Source of the DNA: a virus
Direction: 5' to 3' (one strand)
DNA: 35,036 bases
IMG/VR virus record: IMGVR_UViG_3300020428_000039
Span: 1-35,036 of that record
Shown here piece after piece: positions 1-22,879 of this stretch (the stretch's first letter is position 1; each line of letters begins with the position of its first letter). The notes beneath the pieces were generated by a model. It was given only the letters and a program-made list of their open reading frames with translations, did no database searches and had not been told where the DNA came from. The position numbers and the translations under genes were made by a program.

Positions 1-1618
1 CTTTACCTTGTGCAATTGCTCCATCTGCAGTAAGTTGAATTTCAGAACTTCCACCCGGCCCTGTTGGACCTGCTGCACCTGCGGGACCGCCTGGGCCTGC
101 TGGACCTGCTGGACCTGCTGGACCTGCTGGACCTCCTGAGGGGCCTGTTGGACCCTGTGCACCAGTACTACCTCCTGGACCTGCTGGGCCCTGAGCTCCT
201 TGAGGACCGGCAGGTCCTTGTATTCCTTGTGAACCTGAAGGCCCTGCTGGACCTGTTCCTCCTGTTGGACCTGTTGGACCTGCTGCACCTGTTGGGCCTG
301 TAGCTCCTCCACCAATTAGAACGGCTGCTCCCATTCCGGAATGATTAGTACAGTAATAGTACAATGCTGGAGTATCTTGCTCTACAACAATTTGTGTATA
401 AGCACCAGAAGAACCCGGAGTTCCAACAGCTGTAACTCCTGTTGTATACTGTGAACTTCCTGCTGCATCTGCTGCAGTAGCAAATCTTAGTGGATGTCCT
501 GAGTTACTTGAATCTGACTGATCAAATCTAAATGTACCACTTTTTATAATTGTAGCAACTTGTTGAACAGTTCCATCTAATGCATACTTATTGCCTCCAG
601 AGTTTACAACTGTAACAAGAACAGTAAAGTGTCCAGAAGAGCTTCCTGCAATTGCACCAGAAACAAAAGCTGTTGTTGCTAGCTGAGTAGTATTTGTGCC
701 TGCAGCTGCAGTTGGTGCTGCAGGAGTACCTGTAAGTACTGGACTTGCCTTTGGCGCAAGTGTTGATAAATCAATTCCACCCAAAGCAGTTTGTACAAAA
801 GCTGTCGTTGCTAGTTGAGTAGTATTCGTACCCGAACTTGCTGTAGGGGCTGCAGGAGTACCTGTAAGTGTTGGGCTTGCAAGAGGTGCTTTTGTTGCAA
901 GACTATTTGTAATTGTAGTACTAAAACTTGCATCATCATTAATTGCTGCAGCTAACTCATTCAAAGTATTCATAGCTGCCGGTGCAGAATCAACAAGAGA
1001 AGTTATTTCTTGTTGAACAAATGCAGTAGTAGCAAGTTGAGTTGTACTTGTACTTCCACTAGCTGTAGGTGCCGCAGGAGTGCCTGTAAATGTCGGGCTT
1101 GCAAGATCTGCTTTTACAGTAAGATCGGGTGGAGTATAGGTAAATACTCCAGTAGTGTTATTATAGGCTAACGCTCCTCCACTTGATGCGGAAGCGCTTG
1201 TTACTGATAAGTCTGTTAGTGCTACAGTTTGAACTTGAGAACCAGTACTACCACTTACTGTTGGAGTTTGCTGTAGGCTTCCGTCTGATGCAACTCCTAA
1301 CTTGATAGTGGTGTTTCCGGTACCAATTGTAACTTCTGGAAGTTGAATACCAGAAGAAGTAGCTGTTATATCTTGTCCTCCAAGATTTATAGAGCTACCA
1401 GAAAGATAAAGGTCTCTCCATTTCTTAGTACTACTACCTAAGTCATAGGTTACATCTGTACTAGGAAGAACATGTTCACCAACAGAGCCTAAATTAATGG
1501 CTGAGCCTGTTGGTGTAGCATCCCAGTATCCTTTTGTTGAATTATATGTATAAGTAGTGGAACCGACTGTTATGGTATCTCCATTACTCGGACTACTTGG
1601 AAAATTAACTGCTGTCAT
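1..1618 (-). CDS. Collagen-like tail fibre with cupredoxin-like domain (3' end outside window)
   Basis: Probable tail fibre or receptor-binding protein; 539 codons are visible from the ATG at 1618 and the frame is still open at the left edge. Order by residue: an N-terminal segment with [14 protein letters not shown]; a [16 protein letters not shown] motif near 60-75, common in phage fibres; a [17 protein letters not shown] module; three [13 protein letters not shown]...[10 protein letters not shown] repeats with a [12 protein letters not shown] linker; a beta-rich domain at about 325-438; a Gly-X-Y collagen-like stalk at about 440-522; then [11 protein letters not shown] at the edge. The 325-438 domain contains H375 in GHPLRF and the run [12 protein letters not shown], giving C423, H426 and M429. 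This is the ligand order and C-x2-H-x2-M spacing of amicyanin-type blue copper proteins. C423 is the only cysteine I see in the visible protein. It follows the 541-residue fibre gene after 12 bases. That it is a fibre is fairly sure; metal binding is inference. Confidence 0.85.
97..132 (-). repeat. Tandem 9-base repeat in collagen-like stalk
   Basis: Four perfect copies of CTGCTGGAC (plus-strand reading) stand in tandem inside the fibre gene. On the coding strand each copy gives a Gly-Pro-Ala triplet. Because the unit is 9 bases, gain or loss of copies would change stalk length without breaking the frame. Confidence 0.85.
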
Positions 1619-1630
1619 TGTTTCTTCCTT

Positions 1631-3256
1631 TTATAATACTTGCGTTAGTCTTACCCATTGTGCAGAGCTACCGTCATTGTAATAAACAAATGTCTTCAAA
1701 TTATCTTCATCTAACCATAGATCTCCTTCAGTCGGAGAACTGGGCGCTGAACCTGAAATCGTAAAAAGTGCTCCAGAAGCTCTTCCGCCAATTGCAAAAG
1801 ATACCCACTGAGAGGAGCTACCGTCATTGTAATAAATATATGGTTGAAGATTAGTGGGATCCCACCATAAATCTCCAGTATCGGGAGTACTTGGAGCTGT
1901 TGCTGAAATATCTATCTTTGCAGAAGTGCTTCCTGCTCCACCAATTGCAAAAGATACCCACTGTGCAGAGCTACCATCATTATAGTAAATATAGGGATGA
2001 AGGTTTGCAGAGTCCCACCATAAGTCTCCCGCTGAAGGACTACTTGGAGCTGTTACTGAAATTGTTACATTTGCAGCTCCTGCCGACAATGCTGATGTTA
2101 CAAAAGCTGTTGTAGCTATCTGCGTATTATTTGTGCCTGATGTAGCTGTTGGAGCTAAAGGAGTACCAGTAAGTGTTGGACTATTTTTAGGTGCTAAGGT
2201 ACTTAGATCAACTCCTGAGACTCTTGATTCAACAAAAGCTGTGGTGGCTACTTGTGTTGTGTTTGTACCCGATGCTGCAGTTGGTGCCGCAGGAGTACCT
2301 GTAAATGTTGGACTTGCAGTTGTTGCAAACGATGTTAAATCTGCAGGAGCAAAACTAAATACTCCCGCATTATTGTATGTTAAAGCGCCTCCTCCTGTTG
2401 CAGATTGTGTAGAAATAGATAAACTATCAAAATCTATTCCTGAAGGGCGATTGAATAAAACCCATTGATTTGATGTTCCGTCATTATAATATACATAAGT
2501 ATTTAAAGCTTCCGTATCAAACCAGAGAGTTCCTGTAGAAGGAGCGCTAGGTGCATTTGTTCCAAAATGTATAGTTGCTCCTGAAGGGCCTGTTGGACCC
2601 GCAGGTCCTTGTCCTCCAAGAGATCCTTGTATACCTTGAGGGCCCTGGCCTCCAGTTGCACCAGTAGGGCCTGTTGGACCTATGGGACCAAGGGGACCTT
2701 GTATTCCTTGTGGTCCTTGTGCTCCAGTTGTACCAGTAGGACCTGCTACACCTGCTGCACCAGATAAATCTGTAGTAAGACTATAAGTGCTCCCATTCCA
2801 AAGATATAATCTTGAATTTTCTGCGTCTTGTACATTTCCAGTATTTATTATTGCAAATTCTCCAGTTGCAATTCCTGAAGGAGTAGTATCTGCAGATAAA
2901 GCTGAAACAGAACTATATGTTTTTGCAATATTAAAACCTAATCCTGTTGCACCAGTTGACCCTTGTATTCCCTGTGGACCTTGTATACCTTGAGGACCTT
3001 GTGCTCCTTGAGGACCTGTAGGACCTACTACACCTTGAATACCTTGAATACCTTGAATACCTTGTGGGCCTGTAGGACCCGTAGGTCCAGTTGGTCCAAC
3101 ATTTGAATATGCCAATGAAGTAAAAGCCGTATTTCCATCTCCTACCTTAAAGGCATCAGTATCAGTAACATAAGCTAACTCACCAACAGCAAGTGTTGGA
3201 TTGTGACTAGTCCAGTTACTAAGAGTATCTCTTCTTATTTGAATTTGTACGGCCAT
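1631..3256 (-). CDS. Tail fibre with Mtd_N-like N-terminus, two collagen-like stalks and fourfold YYNDGSS repeat
   Basis: A 541-residue fibre or receptor-binding protein. Residues 1-50 ([10 protein letters not shown]....[19 protein letters not shown]) match the N-terminal domain of phage major tropism determinants, which usually anchors a fibre to the virion. Collagen-like Gly-X-Y runs lie at about 54-105 and 169-227, mostly GPT, GPQ and GIQ triplets. [18 protein letters not shown] module (about 288-305) and two SPTxTGTPxAPTA repeats follow. Four copies of a roughly 37-residue unit (P-S-x-[19 protein letters not shown]) lie near 233-268, 402-438, 453-489 and 503-540; the last three are 50-51 residues apart. 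I see no C-type lectin variable region. The ATG shares one base with the stop of the gene upstream (TAATG), which suggests translational coupling. Confidence 0.88.
3032..3058 (-). repeat. Tandem 9-base repeat encoding Gly-Ile-Gln triplets
   Basis: Three perfect copies of ACCTTGAAT (plus-strand reading), with a partial fourth to 3064, encode consecutive Ile-Gln-Gly triplets in the first collagen-like stalk of the 541-residue fibre. Repeat slippage here would stay in frame. Confidence 0.85.
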
Positions 3257-12213: not shown

Positions 12214-13188
12214 TTAAAGTATAGTTTTTAACCTAGCTATGGTTGTTTCTTTATTATAACACAGATAATTTAAACAATACCATGCTAACCATTTTCTACT
12301 TAATAATTTATTAAACCACGATAAATTATTGATATACTCTTTTATTTTTTGCAAGTGTCGTAAATCTTTAGTAATCCAATGATACTCAGGATAACCATAA
12401 CTTATAATTGGTACATCGTACATCATGCATTCTATTCCAGAGGTACTATTTTCAGTAATTGCAACTTTAGTATGTGGTAGAATATCATGCAAACTTTCAA
12501 AACCAGAAAACACTATTACTCCTTCCTTTTCCCAAGCATCAATAGTTGATTGATAATAAATCCATGCATCTTTTGGTTTTAAGGTAGGATGTATCTTTAG
12601 AACAATATTATAATCTTTTTTTAAAAAATTAACAATTTCTACGACTTTTTGCCAATGACTTCCAAAAGAAAATTTTGTTACTGTTTCATCTCCCGGCATT
12701 TGTCCTAAAATAAGAATATGATCTTTAGGAATATTTTTTACTCTTGAAAACTGTAAATCTTTAGATTCTGACCATTTATTTACTCTTTCTGTTTTGAATT
12801 CTTTAACTTTTGTCTTAAAAAATTTAGTTTCATCTACATCTGTGAATAATGGTTTATTATATGTAATATCTGAAGCACATGCATAACCTTCAATGTCAAG
12901 AGAGAAATAGTCCGGAGTAGGTGCTGTTGGTTTAAAGAATAATGTTTTTTTGCCTGTGTTAAAATTATTTGCTAGTATATCTTCTAAGTAAGTATGATTA
13001 TATAGATAAATATCATCATTAGAATCTATAATTCCTTTTGTAACTTTATAAGGAGTATTAAACTGTAAATAATTGCTTACACAACACTCTATATCAAGTT
13101 CAATAAAAGATGCAATTATTACATTTAAAATACGTTCCCAATTTCCATCTAATGTTTGAAAACGATTTCCACAAATATTAACTTTCAT
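12214..13188 (-). CDS. Capsule-type glycosyltransferase (Caps_synth/KpsC-S-like)
   Basis: A 324-residue protein with the C-terminal half of a GT-B-like fold. ILGQMPGDETVT at about 160-171 begins the second domain. IHPTLKP at 199-205 and ENSTSGIECMMYDVPIISYG at 246-265 match the capsule polysaccharide synthesis family of KpsC and KpsS, whose conserved HP and NSTSGxE motifs take part in binding the CMP-Kdo donor. The N-terminal 130 residues are less clear. The last 35 residues are aromatic and basic and may bind a membrane surface or a partner. The ATG lies inside the end of the oxygenase gene (11-base overlap), so the two are translated together. The sugar and acceptor are unknown; candidates are a fibre protein or host surface glycan. 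The gene looks more AT-rich than its neighbours, as expected for acquired cargo. Confidence 0.75.
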   Translation of the reverse strand: MKVNICGNRFQTLDGNWERILNVIIASFIELDIECCVSNYLQFNTPYKVTKGIIDSNDDIYLYNHTYLEDILANNFNTGKKTLFFKPTAPTPDYFSLDIEGYACASDITYNKPLFTDVDETKFFKTKVKEFKTERVNKWSESKDLQFSRVKNIPKDHILILGQMPGDETVTKFSFGSHWQKVVEIVNFLKKDYNIVLKIHPTLKPKDAWIYYQSTIDAWEKEGVIVFSGFESLHDILPHTKVAITENSTSGIECMMYDVPIISYGYPEYHWITKDLRHLQKIKEYINNLSWFNKLLSRKWLAWYCLNYLCYNKETTIARLKTIL

Positions 13189-13807
13189 TATACCAGCCAG
13201 TTATTGCAACTCTTGCATAAGGAGCTCGCTCACTAACTTCGCTTACAAAATGTGGAACGCCATCATTTTCTAATTGCATAAGTGTTAAGGTATTAAACTC
13301 AGGATATATTACTTGAGGTTCGTCACCAAGAATATGTAAAGCTCCACCATATTCGGGTAACCAATTTGGAGTTAGTTGATATATAAAAGCAACACCGCGA
13401 TTATGATCTTTATGAGTATTTAAAAAGTCTCCAGAAGAATATACAGAGGTAAATGACTCAAAAATATAAGGATTTTTAAAACTACAAACTTCTGAGACTA
13501 GAGTTTTTACTTCTTTTTCAAGATATTGTTTTTTAAAGTTGCACTCATAGCAAGTACAAGTTGGAACGTGAGTAGTACTTCTCCTAAATTTATAGCTAAA
13601 AGCTCCAGTTTGAAAACTATTTGTAACTAAAACGTCTTCTTTCTTACGTTCACTTGTTCCAAATGCAGTATCTGTAAAATATTTGGGTTTTTCTAATCCT
13701 GCATGCTTATAAGCGTAGGACCACCAGTTGCTTGGCGTATTATAAATTGCTGTTGAAATTGCTTTTGCCTCTTGTTCTGGCAAAAAATCTTTGATAATTT
13801 TTATCAT
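13178..13807 (-). CDS. 2-oxoglutarate/Fe(II)-dependent oxygenase, prolyl-hydroxylase type
   Basis: A 209-residue dioxygenase of the prolyl 4-hydroxylase type, which couples 2-oxoglutarate decarboxylation to hydroxylation. Iron ligands are H132 and D134 (THKDHNRG) and H186 (VPHFVSEV). R199 in ARVAITGWY is placed to bind 2-oxoglutarate. All key residues are present, so the enzyme should be active. C84, C86 and C89 (TCTCYECN) with nearby H80 form a cluster that could hold a structural metal. The gene starts 12 bases after the J stop, with an AGGAA site, and overlaps the glycosyltransferase by 11 bases. The substrate is not shown; protein proline or lysine, or a small molecule, are possible. The proximity of collagen-like fibres makes a fibre protein worth testing. 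Confidence 0.82.
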   Translation of the reverse strand: MIKIIKDFLPEQEAKAISTAIYNTPSNWWSYAYKHAGLEKPKYFTDTAFGTSERKKEDVLVTNSFQTGAFSYKFRRSTTHVPTCTCYECNFKKQYLEKEVKTLVSEVCSFKNPYIFESFTSVYSSGDFLNTHKDHNRGVAFIYQLTPNWLPEYGGALHILGDEPQVIYPEFNTLTLMQLENDGVPHFVSEVSERAPYARVAITGWYNES

Positions 13808-21549: not shown

Positions 21550-22194
21550 CTATACTCTCTCATAAAGAATCATATCAATATCATTTAACGGATTTACTGC
21601 CGCCATTTTATTCTGACCACTATTTCCTGTTGTTCCCTGTGTTGCAGCACCTTCAAAAGATGCATCTACTGATAAGGGCAGTCCTGGCACTCGTAAATTA
21701 CCATACAATACTGGAACAGGTGCTCCCTCTTTAATATTTTGTTGACCACCATCAAAAAGATAATTTCTATTTTCTTCTTCATCATCAACTGCCGGATCTG
21801 GCATCATCATTTCAGCCATACCATAATTAGCTAATATTGTACCAACTACTAATATAACTTTTCCCAATGTTCCGCCTATAATAAGACCTGCAACCATCAT
21901 AGCAGCACCTACAACTGCTTTTACTGCTCCTGAGCTTCCGGCAGGAACAATAAAAAGAGTAATATTTTTAAGATCTTTGTTCATTGCAACATCTTCTTCG
22001 GAAAGATACTCGCCATCGTCCGTTTCCCATGCAAAATTAATTCCTTTTTCTGCGCACTCGATTAAATAATTTCTAAATGAAGGTTCATTTGCTTGTATAC
22101 ATTTTATAAAATCTAAATAATTATTTGCATTTACAGAATAGCAAGAACCAAAACGCTCTCCTAGATTACCTTGTAAGTAAATATTACACTGCAT
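21550..22194 (-). CDS. I: Tail assembly protein, lambda gpI-like
   Basis: A 214-residue homologue of lambda tail assembly protein I, needed to form the tail tip. The N-terminal 85 residues hold a ubiquitin-like domain (IYLQGNLGERFG...). A Gly/Ala/Val-rich hydrophobic stretch follows at about 88-130. The segment NYLFDGGQQN then GAPVPVLYGNLRVPG at about 152-180 is the hallmark of this family. The ATG lies inside the 3' end of the gpK-like gene (11-base overlap), and J begins 5 bases after its stop. The hydrophobic region could look like membrane segments but is usual here. Role inferred from family and order. Confidence 0.85.
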   Translation of the reverse strand: MQCNIYLQGNLGERFGSCYSVNANNYLDFIKCIQANEPSFRNYLIECAEKGINFAWETDDGEYLSEEDVAMNKDLKNITLFIVPAGSSGAVKAVVGAAMMVAGLIIGGTLGKVILVVGTILANYGMAEMMMPDPAVDDEEENRNYLFDGGQQNIKEGAPVPVLYGNLRVPGLPLSVDASFEGAATQGTTGNSGQNKMAAVNPLNDIDMILYERV

Positions 22195-22879
22195 ATCGAT
22201 AAACTCCTGTTATATACTTGTGCCAAGTTGGATATAAATTTTCTCTGCAGGAAAGACGATTTGCTGCATGATGGTAAAATAAATCATTTCCAATATATAC
22301 TCCACAATGATTTGGAACCATTGAGTATACATTGAAAAGTAACATATCATTCTCTTTCATATTATCTTGAACTTTTTCAAAACTCCATTCATTAATATAG
22401 TCAGTAAAATAATCCAAATTTTTAGTCCACCAATTATCTTCAAATGCTAATCTAGGATTAACAACTAATCCTGTAGACATATAATAGTCTCTTACTGCTT
22501 CAAAACAATCTTGAACTCCAAATTTATACTCTCTTCCATACAAAGGTTTTTCTTTTTTATCTGGATGAAGTAAATACATTTCCATTTCCGGATAACTAAA
22601 TATGTAATAAGGTATTCCTAGAGCATTACAGTTATCAATATCTACCTGACTAGGCTCTGGAGAGGAATCTGGATGACTATGTACAATTCCTGTAATATCA
22701 TACTGCTTTGCTATTGAAATATACTCTTTTGAGTCAAAAATAAAATTTTCTTTTTCTTCTGCTTTATTTTTACAAGGAATCCATTTTAACTTTCCTTTTT
22801 CTACAACCAAAAGACCACAACCCTCACGAGGATACTCTTCTCTAAAATGTTCTTCTATATCTGTAATAAATTTAATCAT
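22184..22879 (-). CDS. K: Tail assembly protein gpK-like: JAMM peptidase plus NlpC/P60 domain
   Basis: A 231-residue two-domain hydrolase. Residues 1-110 form a JAB1/MPN domain with a complete JAMM zinc motif: E19, then H67-x-H69-P, S77 and D80 (HSHPDSSPEPSQVD). Residues 115-231 form an NlpC/P60 domain with catalytic C125 (GVQDCFEAVRDYY) and H191 (NHCGVYIGNDLFYHH). Lambda gpK has the same arrangement and acts in tail tip assembly; the NlpC/P60 half may cut peptidoglycan. The ATG overlaps the stop of L by four bases (ATGA) and the 3' end overlaps I by 11 bases. Both active sites look intact. Confidence 0.92.
   Translation of the reverse strand: MIKFITDIEEHFREEYPREGCGLLVVEKGKLKWIPCKNKAEEKENFIFDSKEYISIAKQYDITGIVHSHPDSSPEPSQVDIDNCNALGIPYYIFSYPEMEMYLLHPDKKEKPLYGREYKFGVQDCFEAVRDYYMSTGLVVNPRLAFEDNWWTKNLDYFTDYINEWSFEKVQDNMKENDMLLFNVYSMVPNHCGVYIGNDLFYHHAANRLSCRENLYPTWHKYITGVYRYAV

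What the first reader, a model, noticed from the sequence alone, without database searches (positions are those of the whole stretch)
300..660. Complete type-1 copper ligand set in a phage tail fibre
In the left-edge fibre, a roughly 110-residue beta-rich domain contains GHPLRF (H375) and [12 protein letters not shown] (C423, H426, M429). In blue copper proteins the ligands are an upstream His and then Cys-x2-His-x2-Met in amicyanin (Cys-x2-His-x4-Met in plastocyanin). The 48-residue step from H375 to C423 is close to the 47 in plastocyanin (His37 to Cys84). C423 is the only cysteine in the 539 visible residues, which argues for a ligand rather than a disulphide. I recall similar YYYCxNHSGMG segments in other marine phage proteins, but know of no account of a metal role. 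A cupredoxin in a fibre could sense redox or copper state, stabilise the fibre, or bind a copper-related receptor.
Basis: partly seen in the sequence, partly recalled or inferred. Interest (0 to 1): 0.85.

Follow-up and report, generated by a model that had tools for sequence, protein, structure and literature searches.

The report
Copper-protein domain on marine phage tails
A tail fibre of this marine phage carries a small domain that is predicted to fold like a blue copper protein and keeps the complete copper-holding residue set, and hundreds of other marine phages, including the baseplates of T4-like cyanophages, carry the same module, so many ocean phage particles may hold copper, although nobody has yet measured it.

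Summary
The fibre at window 1618..2 (- strand) has H375, C423, H426 and M429 as described, and C423 is the only Cys in 539 residues. AlphaFold2 gives a confident beta-sandwich (pLDDT 87.5) whose best PDB matches are all copper-protein domains (rusticyanin, copper nitrite reductase; VIA Z 9.4, 2.6 A). The domain belongs to a large marine-phage family. Of 294 unique copies, 199 have H/C/H/M and 31 have H/C/H/Q (stellacyanin-like axial Gln), always as C-x2-H-x2-M/Q (303 of 303 copies). One sister branch (58 unique sequences) has lost all four together. In the gene after gp9 the same set recurred in domains never used as bait. The C-terminal domain of cyanophage gp9, the baseplate fibre connector, matches copper nitrite reductase by plain sequence search, ligand on ligand. 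Secreted bacterial relatives carry the set too. No paper found in the library describes this. Copper binding, blue colour and function are untested, and ligand distances could not be measured. My leading model is a mobile, copper-stabilised virion module; a redox or copper-docking role is open.

The parts
2..1618 (-). Tail-fibre gene carrying the domain; 539 residues visible, C-terminus beyond the window edge
   Evidence: ORF with open 3' end; PHROGs tail fiber families, phrog_454 E 2.4e-46 and others
659..1126 (-). Fibre shaft repeats ([12 protein letters not shown]...TQLATTAFV), residues about 165-320, just before the domain
   Evidence: PHROGs tail fiber matches to residues 134-281; sequence
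308..631 (-). Cupredoxin-like domain, residues 330-437
   Evidence: AlphaFold2 pLDDT 87.5, pTM 0.82; Foldseek PDB top matches rusticyanin and copper nitrite reductase; VIA Z 9.4, 2.6 A over 99 residues
494..496 (-). H375, first ligand (two residues before strand 58-61 of the model)
   Evidence: Invariant in 71-row alignment A2; 74/74, 51/51 and 31/31 in three families
350..352 (-). C423, thiolate ligand at the end of the penultimate strand
   Evidence: Invariant in A2; only Cys in 228 of 230 unique complete domains
341..343 (-). H426, second His ligand
   Evidence: Invariant in A2; always Cys+3 (303/303)
332..334 (-). M429, axial ligand; replaced only by Gln, in one family
   Evidence: Met or Gln in 303/303 complete copies, always His+3
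29..307 (-). Collagen-like Gly-x-y repeats directly after the domain, residues 438-530
   Evidence: Pfam PF01391 E 4.4e-6, just under its cut-off

Best explanation
The domain is a cupredoxin: an eight-stranded beta-sandwich with a mononuclear type-1-like copper site made of H375, C423 (end of the penultimate strand), H426 and M429 (loop before the last strand), with the short amicyanin-type loop C-x2-H-x2-M. It is a mobile module that marine phages attach to virion proteins (tail fibres, gp9 and the adjacent baseplate protein, a protein encoded near the portal). Here it sits between fibre-shaft repeats and a collagen-like stalk. Shown by computation: the sequence, the family, the predicted fold, and conservation and joint loss of the ligand set. 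Inferred: copper is bound, probably loaded after the fibre leaves the copper-poor cytoplasm, at lysis or in seawater. Also inferred, and least certain (about 0.4): the copper mainly locks the ligand loop and so stabilises a compact surface domain that acts as spacer or weak adhesin. A redox or copper-docking role at the host surface (about 0.35 together) is the main alternative.
For: Model pLDDT 87.5, pTM 0.82, with C104 (=C423) the last residue of one strand and M110 (=M429) just before the final strand. In Foldseek against 350,542 PDB chains all 13 matches at E<=0.001 are blue-copper or multicopper proteins. VIA: HdNIR N-terminal domain Z 9.4, 2.6 A over 99 residues; rusticyanin Z up to 9.0. 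Across families about 25-63% identical to the window domain the only invariant columns are H, P, Y, Y, C, H. gp9 family 51/51 H,C,H,M; P-RSM6 family 31/31 H,C,H,Q. Copies never used as bait, in the gene after gp9, keep H,C,H,M whenever complete. C-x2-H-x2-M/Q in 303/303 copies; one Cys in 228/230 unique domains. A sister family loses all four: 0 of 58 has Cys, H to L/R/K/T/I/V, C to E/D, H to T, M to A/N/S, yet it is clearly homologous (hhalign 98.2%, E 3.2e-14). The gp9 domain hits copper nitrite reductase (E 0.0023), then weakly a second NiR, plastocyanin and amicyanin; in the nitrite reductase alignment H, C, H and M are in register. Relatives match PF00127 (best 5.6e-4), amicyanin and halocyanin models. 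Profile comparison with bacterial pseudoazurin-type sequences 40-66% against below 1% for shuffled or reversed controls. Two secreted bacterial relatives carry the same set.
Against: No metal has been measured. The window protein matches no copper family in Pfam, and relatives score below Pfam's cut-off. Hits of the family profiles to solved cupredoxin sequences are individually weak (E 0.65-1.9). Ligand distances were not measured. One sister family, and a lone copy in phage PSS2, keep the domain without the ligands, so copper is dispensable in some settings. Locus selection partly used motif peptides, although one search gives bait-free copies.
Confidence: 0.78

Rival explanations
1. The domain is an immunoglobulin-like or carbohydrate-binding beta-sandwich of the kind common on phage virions; the Cys, His and Met are conserved for packing or host contact and bind no metal.
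For: Very weak Big_13 (E 0.082) and Big_6 (E 0.13) matches. Such domains are common in phage fibres. The ligand-free sister family matches Ig-like domains, weakly (Z up to 5.4).
Against: The window model matches copper-protein domains first, with Ig domains only from E about 7e-3. Four residues far apart in sequence are kept or lost together. The axial position varies only between Met and Gln, as in type-1 sites.
Confidence: 0.1
2. The site is real but holds another metal in nature, such as zinc, nickel or iron, and has a purely structural role.
For: A Cys/His/His/Met site can bind other soft metals, and seawater offers several. Sequence cannot name the metal.
Against: The fold and the H...C-x2-H-x2-M order are those of copper sites in the closest structural and sequence matches. 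The Met/Gln exchange is typical of type-1 copper sites (established knowledge).
Confidence: 0.12
3. The copper is used at the host surface: either as a redox group that exchanges an electron with a host protein and so senses or triggers, or as bait for copper-uptake proteins, as proposed for iron in the Ferrojan Horse hypothesis. (This is a rival about function; it shares the cupredoxin identification with the best explanation.)
For: The axial ligand, which tunes redox potential in cupredoxins, is conserved as Met or Gln. The module sits on gp9, the fibre connector of the baseplate. Iron-binding HxH fibres are a published precedent (PMC11705849).
Against: The module occurs at many different places, including mid-fibre and a protein encoded next to the portal, not only at receptor-binding tips. 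No host partner is known. The sister family does without it.
Confidence: 0.35
4. The four residues are a chance arrangement in this one protein.
For: Only one copy lies in the window.
Against: 3 of 200,000 shuffles reproduce the pattern. The set is invariant in hundreds of homologues.
Confidence: 0.01

Closest known systems
Rusticyanin (1rcy, 2cak) and the N-terminal cupredoxin domain of Hyphomicrobium nitrite reductase (2dv6)
   Same: Beta-sandwich fold (Z up to 9.0 and 9.4); ligand order His, Cys, His, Met (established knowledge)
   Different: 11-14% identity; those are soluble or periplasmic electron-transfer proteins, this is a domain inside a phage fibre; copper not shown here
Amicyanin / pseudoazurin / plastocyanin family (PF00127)
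   Same: Ligand order; amicyanin's C-x2-H-x2-M spacing; the gp9 relative aligns to amicyanin and to a nitrite reductase chain with an amicyanin-like CTPHPFM stretch; relatives match the Pfam model weakly
   Different: Window domain has no PF00127 match; longer stretch between first His and Cys in many members, with YTTGVT...[12 protein letters not shown]; no signal peptide, embedded in a virion protein
Secreted small cupredoxin-like proteins of a proteobacterium (loci L345/L346)
   Same: 28% identity over the whole domain, same four ligands, same HPF...GVTNNG...HYNCxNHxxMNG pattern
   Different: Stand-alone proteins with apparent signal peptides; no Pfam family
Iron-binding HxH phage tail fibres (Ferrojan Horse hypothesis; T4 gp37, Alteromonas phage R22Y)
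   Same: Proposed metal centres in tail fibres of marine phages (PMC11705849)
   Different: Different ligands (paired His, HxH), iron rather than copper; no HxH in this protein

Membership tests
Cupredoxin superfamily | Greek-key beta-sandwich of about 8 strands | tested here: met
   Predicted model only: 9 strand segments, pLDDT 87.5; best PDB matches all cupredoxin domains
Cupredoxin superfamily | Type-1 ligand set His...Cys-xn-His-xn-Met in order, Cys at end of the penultimate strand, Met just before the last strand | tested here: met
   Positions and strands; conserved in families
Cupredoxin superfamily | The four ligand side chains surround one metal position | not testable with these tools
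   Model coordinates are not released by the tool
Blue (type-1) copper protein | Binds copper, absorbs near 600 nm, narrow EPR hyperfine splitting | not testable with these tools
   Needs purified protein
Pfam PF00127 Copper-bind | Score over the curated cut-off of 21.2 bits | tested here: not met
   Window domain has no match; best relatives only E 5.6e-4
HxH iron-binding phage fibre | HxH motifs in the fibre | tested here: not met
   No HxH among the four His of the 539 visible residues
Bacterial Ig-like (Big) domain | Pfam Big_x match over its cut-off | tested here: not met
   Big_13 13.8 bits against cut-off 27; Ig rows rank below cupredoxins in the structure search

The most novel reading that the evidence does not exclude
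Type-1 copper centres are a standard component of open-ocean phage particles: T4-like cyanophages carry them in two neighbouring baseplate proteins (gp9 and the roughly 1,380-residue protein beside it), and the copper is redox-active and takes part in host recognition or in the trigger for sheath contraction.
Probability: 0.15. Interest if true: 0.95.

Novelty: new variant of a known kind. Interest (0 to 1): 0.76.

Why it matters
Type-1 copper sites are known from electron carriers and copper enzymes. Finding complete, conserved sites in structural proteins of hundreds of marine phages would add a metal to the phage particle, tie phage stability or infection to seawater copper, and make marine viruses a possible carrier of bound copper. 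It can be tested directly: ICP-MS on purified Synechococcus phages, or one expressed domain in a spectrophotometer.

Tried and rejected
Sequence search of the single window domain against solved structures gave nothing useful, and Pfam gave no family. Alignment A1 could not be used for structure prediction because it held rows from the annotated phage collection, and it was too divergent to seed a genome scan. The genome-contig scan with the window domain returned nine contigs that I did not examine one by one; several may be phage contigs in bacterial bins. The ligand-free sister family was modelled as a control: the model is poorer (pLDDT 71) and matches Ig-like domains and cupredoxins only weakly (Z up to 5.4). 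This supports the specificity of the window result but does not prove that the sister family kept the cupredoxin fold. Chance, a disulphide and an HxH iron site were considered and rejected. Ten literature searches found no account of cupredoxins in phage virions (for iron); the library omits most subscription journals, so absence is weak evidence. The host of this phage could not be named: capsid and tail-tip proteins are only distantly similar to known phages.

Full report
WHAT IS THERE. The window is a 35,036-base virus record, a linear piece of a tailed phage with genes for capsid, tail tip and fibres on the - strand. The finding lies in the left-edge fibre, ORF 1618..2 (-), 539 residues, open at the window edge. 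H375, C423, H426 and M429 are present exactly as described, and C423 is the only Cys. The domain (residues 330-437) follows fibre-shaft repeats and precedes collagen-like repeats. The pattern is not expected by chance in this protein (3 of 200,000 shuffles).

FAMILY. The domain has no Pfam family but is widespread: at least 593 viral contigs and 246 phage records at E<=0.01, 371 at E<=1, almost all of Synechococcus, Prochlorococcus, Pelagibacter and Methylophilales phages. It occurs in tail fibres, in a protein encoded near the portal of S-TIM66, in gp9 of T4-like cyanophages (N-terminal T4_gp9_10_N, E 5.7e-8; 329 phage records) and in the gene after gp9.

LIGAND CONSERVATION. In the fibre family all 74 unique sequences have the four residues. 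That sample was fetched partly with motif peptides, so I tested other branches. The gp9 family has H,C,H,M in 51/51. A family from P-RSM6 has H,C,H and Gln at the Met position in 31/31. The gp9 loci contain a second domain in the following gene that was not used as bait, and several P-RSM6-type loci contain a further copy; every complete one has H,C,H,M. In an alignment of 71 sequences the only fully invariant columns are H, P, Y, Y, C, H. Over all 303 complete copies the spacing is always C-x2-H-x2-M/Q, the H-to-C distance varies from 43 to 75, and 228 of 230 unique domains have a single Cys. One sister family, in a structural protein upstream of a putative short tail fibre, has lost all four: no Cys in 58 unique sequences, H replaced by L/R/K/T/I/V, C by E/D, H by T, M by A/N/S. 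It is nevertheless clearly related (hhalign 98.2%, E 3.2e-14). A lone copy in phage PSS2 also lacks the site. Loss as a unit is what a shared metal site predicts.

FOLD. AlphaFold2 with the 71-row alignment gives pLDDT 87.5 and pTM 0.82. The first His lies two residues before a strand, the Cys ends the penultimate strand, and the Met directly precedes the last strand. Foldseek against the PDB returns rusticyanin, copper nitrite reductase and multicopper oxidases as all 13 matches at E<=0.001. VIA-align gives Z 9.4 (2.6 A, 99 residues) for 2dv6 and Z up to 9.0 for rusticyanin. As a control, the ligand-free family, modelled less well (pLDDT 71), gives Z up to 5.4 with Ig-like domains at the top and no Foldseek match below 0.001.

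INDEPENDENT SEQUENCE LINKS. The gp9 domain alone matches copper nitrite reductase 2vmj (E 0.0023), with HPF on HNV and CTIHSQM on CTPHPFM, followed at weaker E-values by a second nitrite reductase, plastocyanin and amicyanin, among a few unrelated chains. Of 24,736 Pfam families, Copper-bind and At5g54830-like are the ones most often hit by family members. NCBIfam's amicyanin and halocyanin models also appear. A profile of 14 bacterial pseudoazurin/plastocyanin-type sequences fetched here aligns with the Cys and second His in register at 40-66% probability, against below 1% for ten shuffled or reversed controls; the first His is a few residues out of register in that alignment. One proteobacterial genome encodes two adjacent secreted stand-alone relatives with the same ligands, a plausible picture of the cellular source.

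MECHANISM. Shown: a conserved, predicted cupredoxin domain with a complete type-1 ligand set on virion proteins. Inferred: copper binding. The axial residue varies only between Met and Gln, as it does among real type-1 sites (Met in plastocyanin, Gln in stellacyanin; established knowledge), which favours copper over a generic structural metal. The role is open. The module appears at many positions and in one family survives without ligands, so I favour a portable beta-sandwich whose copper stabilises the loop and the surface. A redox or copper-docking role, especially for gp9 where the tail fibre joins the baseplate, is not excluded and would be the most interesting outcome. The only published metal parallel found is iron in HxH tail fibres (PMC11705849).

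NOVELTY. No paper in the library couples cupredoxins with phage fibres or blue copper with baseplates; the single hit for cupredoxin and cyanophage and the hits are, by title and abstract, on other subjects. Automatic superfamily labels for some phage proteins in databases I could not query may exist. I rate it a new variant of a known kind: a known fold and metal-site type in a setting where it has not, to my knowledge, been described.

Noticed in passing
window 12214-13807 (-): A 2OG-Fe(II) oxygenase gene (PF13661, E 8.7e-14) and a capsule-synthesis-like gene (PF05159, E 8.6e-6) lie just downstream of the tail-tip gene, in a phage whose fibres have collagen-like repeats; modification of the fibres by hydroxylation or glycosylation is a guess.
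   Followed up: partly
window 1631-3256 (-): The neighbouring fibre has a Major tropism determinant N-terminal domain (PF18454, E 6.7e-13) plus collagen repeats (E 2.1e-14).
   Followed up: no
window 22184-22879 (-): One tail protein joins a JAB-type protease domain and an NlpC/P60 domain.
   Followed up: no
L088:1096-1425, L347:702-6080: In T4-like cyanophages both gp9 and the roughly 1,380-residue gene between gp9 and gp8 carry the domain with all four ligands; T4 gp9 is 288 residues, the cyanophage one 410, and the C-terminal 110 residues of the latter are this domain.
   Followed up: partly
L179-L216: A family from P-RSM6-type phages has Gln in place of the axial Met in every copy, with WCHHHTGQG around the site.
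   Followed up: partly
L217-L296: A structural protein upstream of a putative short tail fibre in cyanophages keeps a related domain but has lost all four ligand positions.
   Followed up: yes
L345, L346: Two adjacent secreted bacterial proteins with the same domain and ligands match no Pfam family: possibly an undescribed family of small cupredoxin-like proteins.
   Followed up: partly
BFVD A0A481Z6J5, A0A481Z7Q7, A0A481YVH3: Giant-virus 'beta-sandwich proteins' (Pithovirus, Marseillevirus) match the model with TM-scores of about 0.66-0.71; their ligands were not checked.
   Followed up: no
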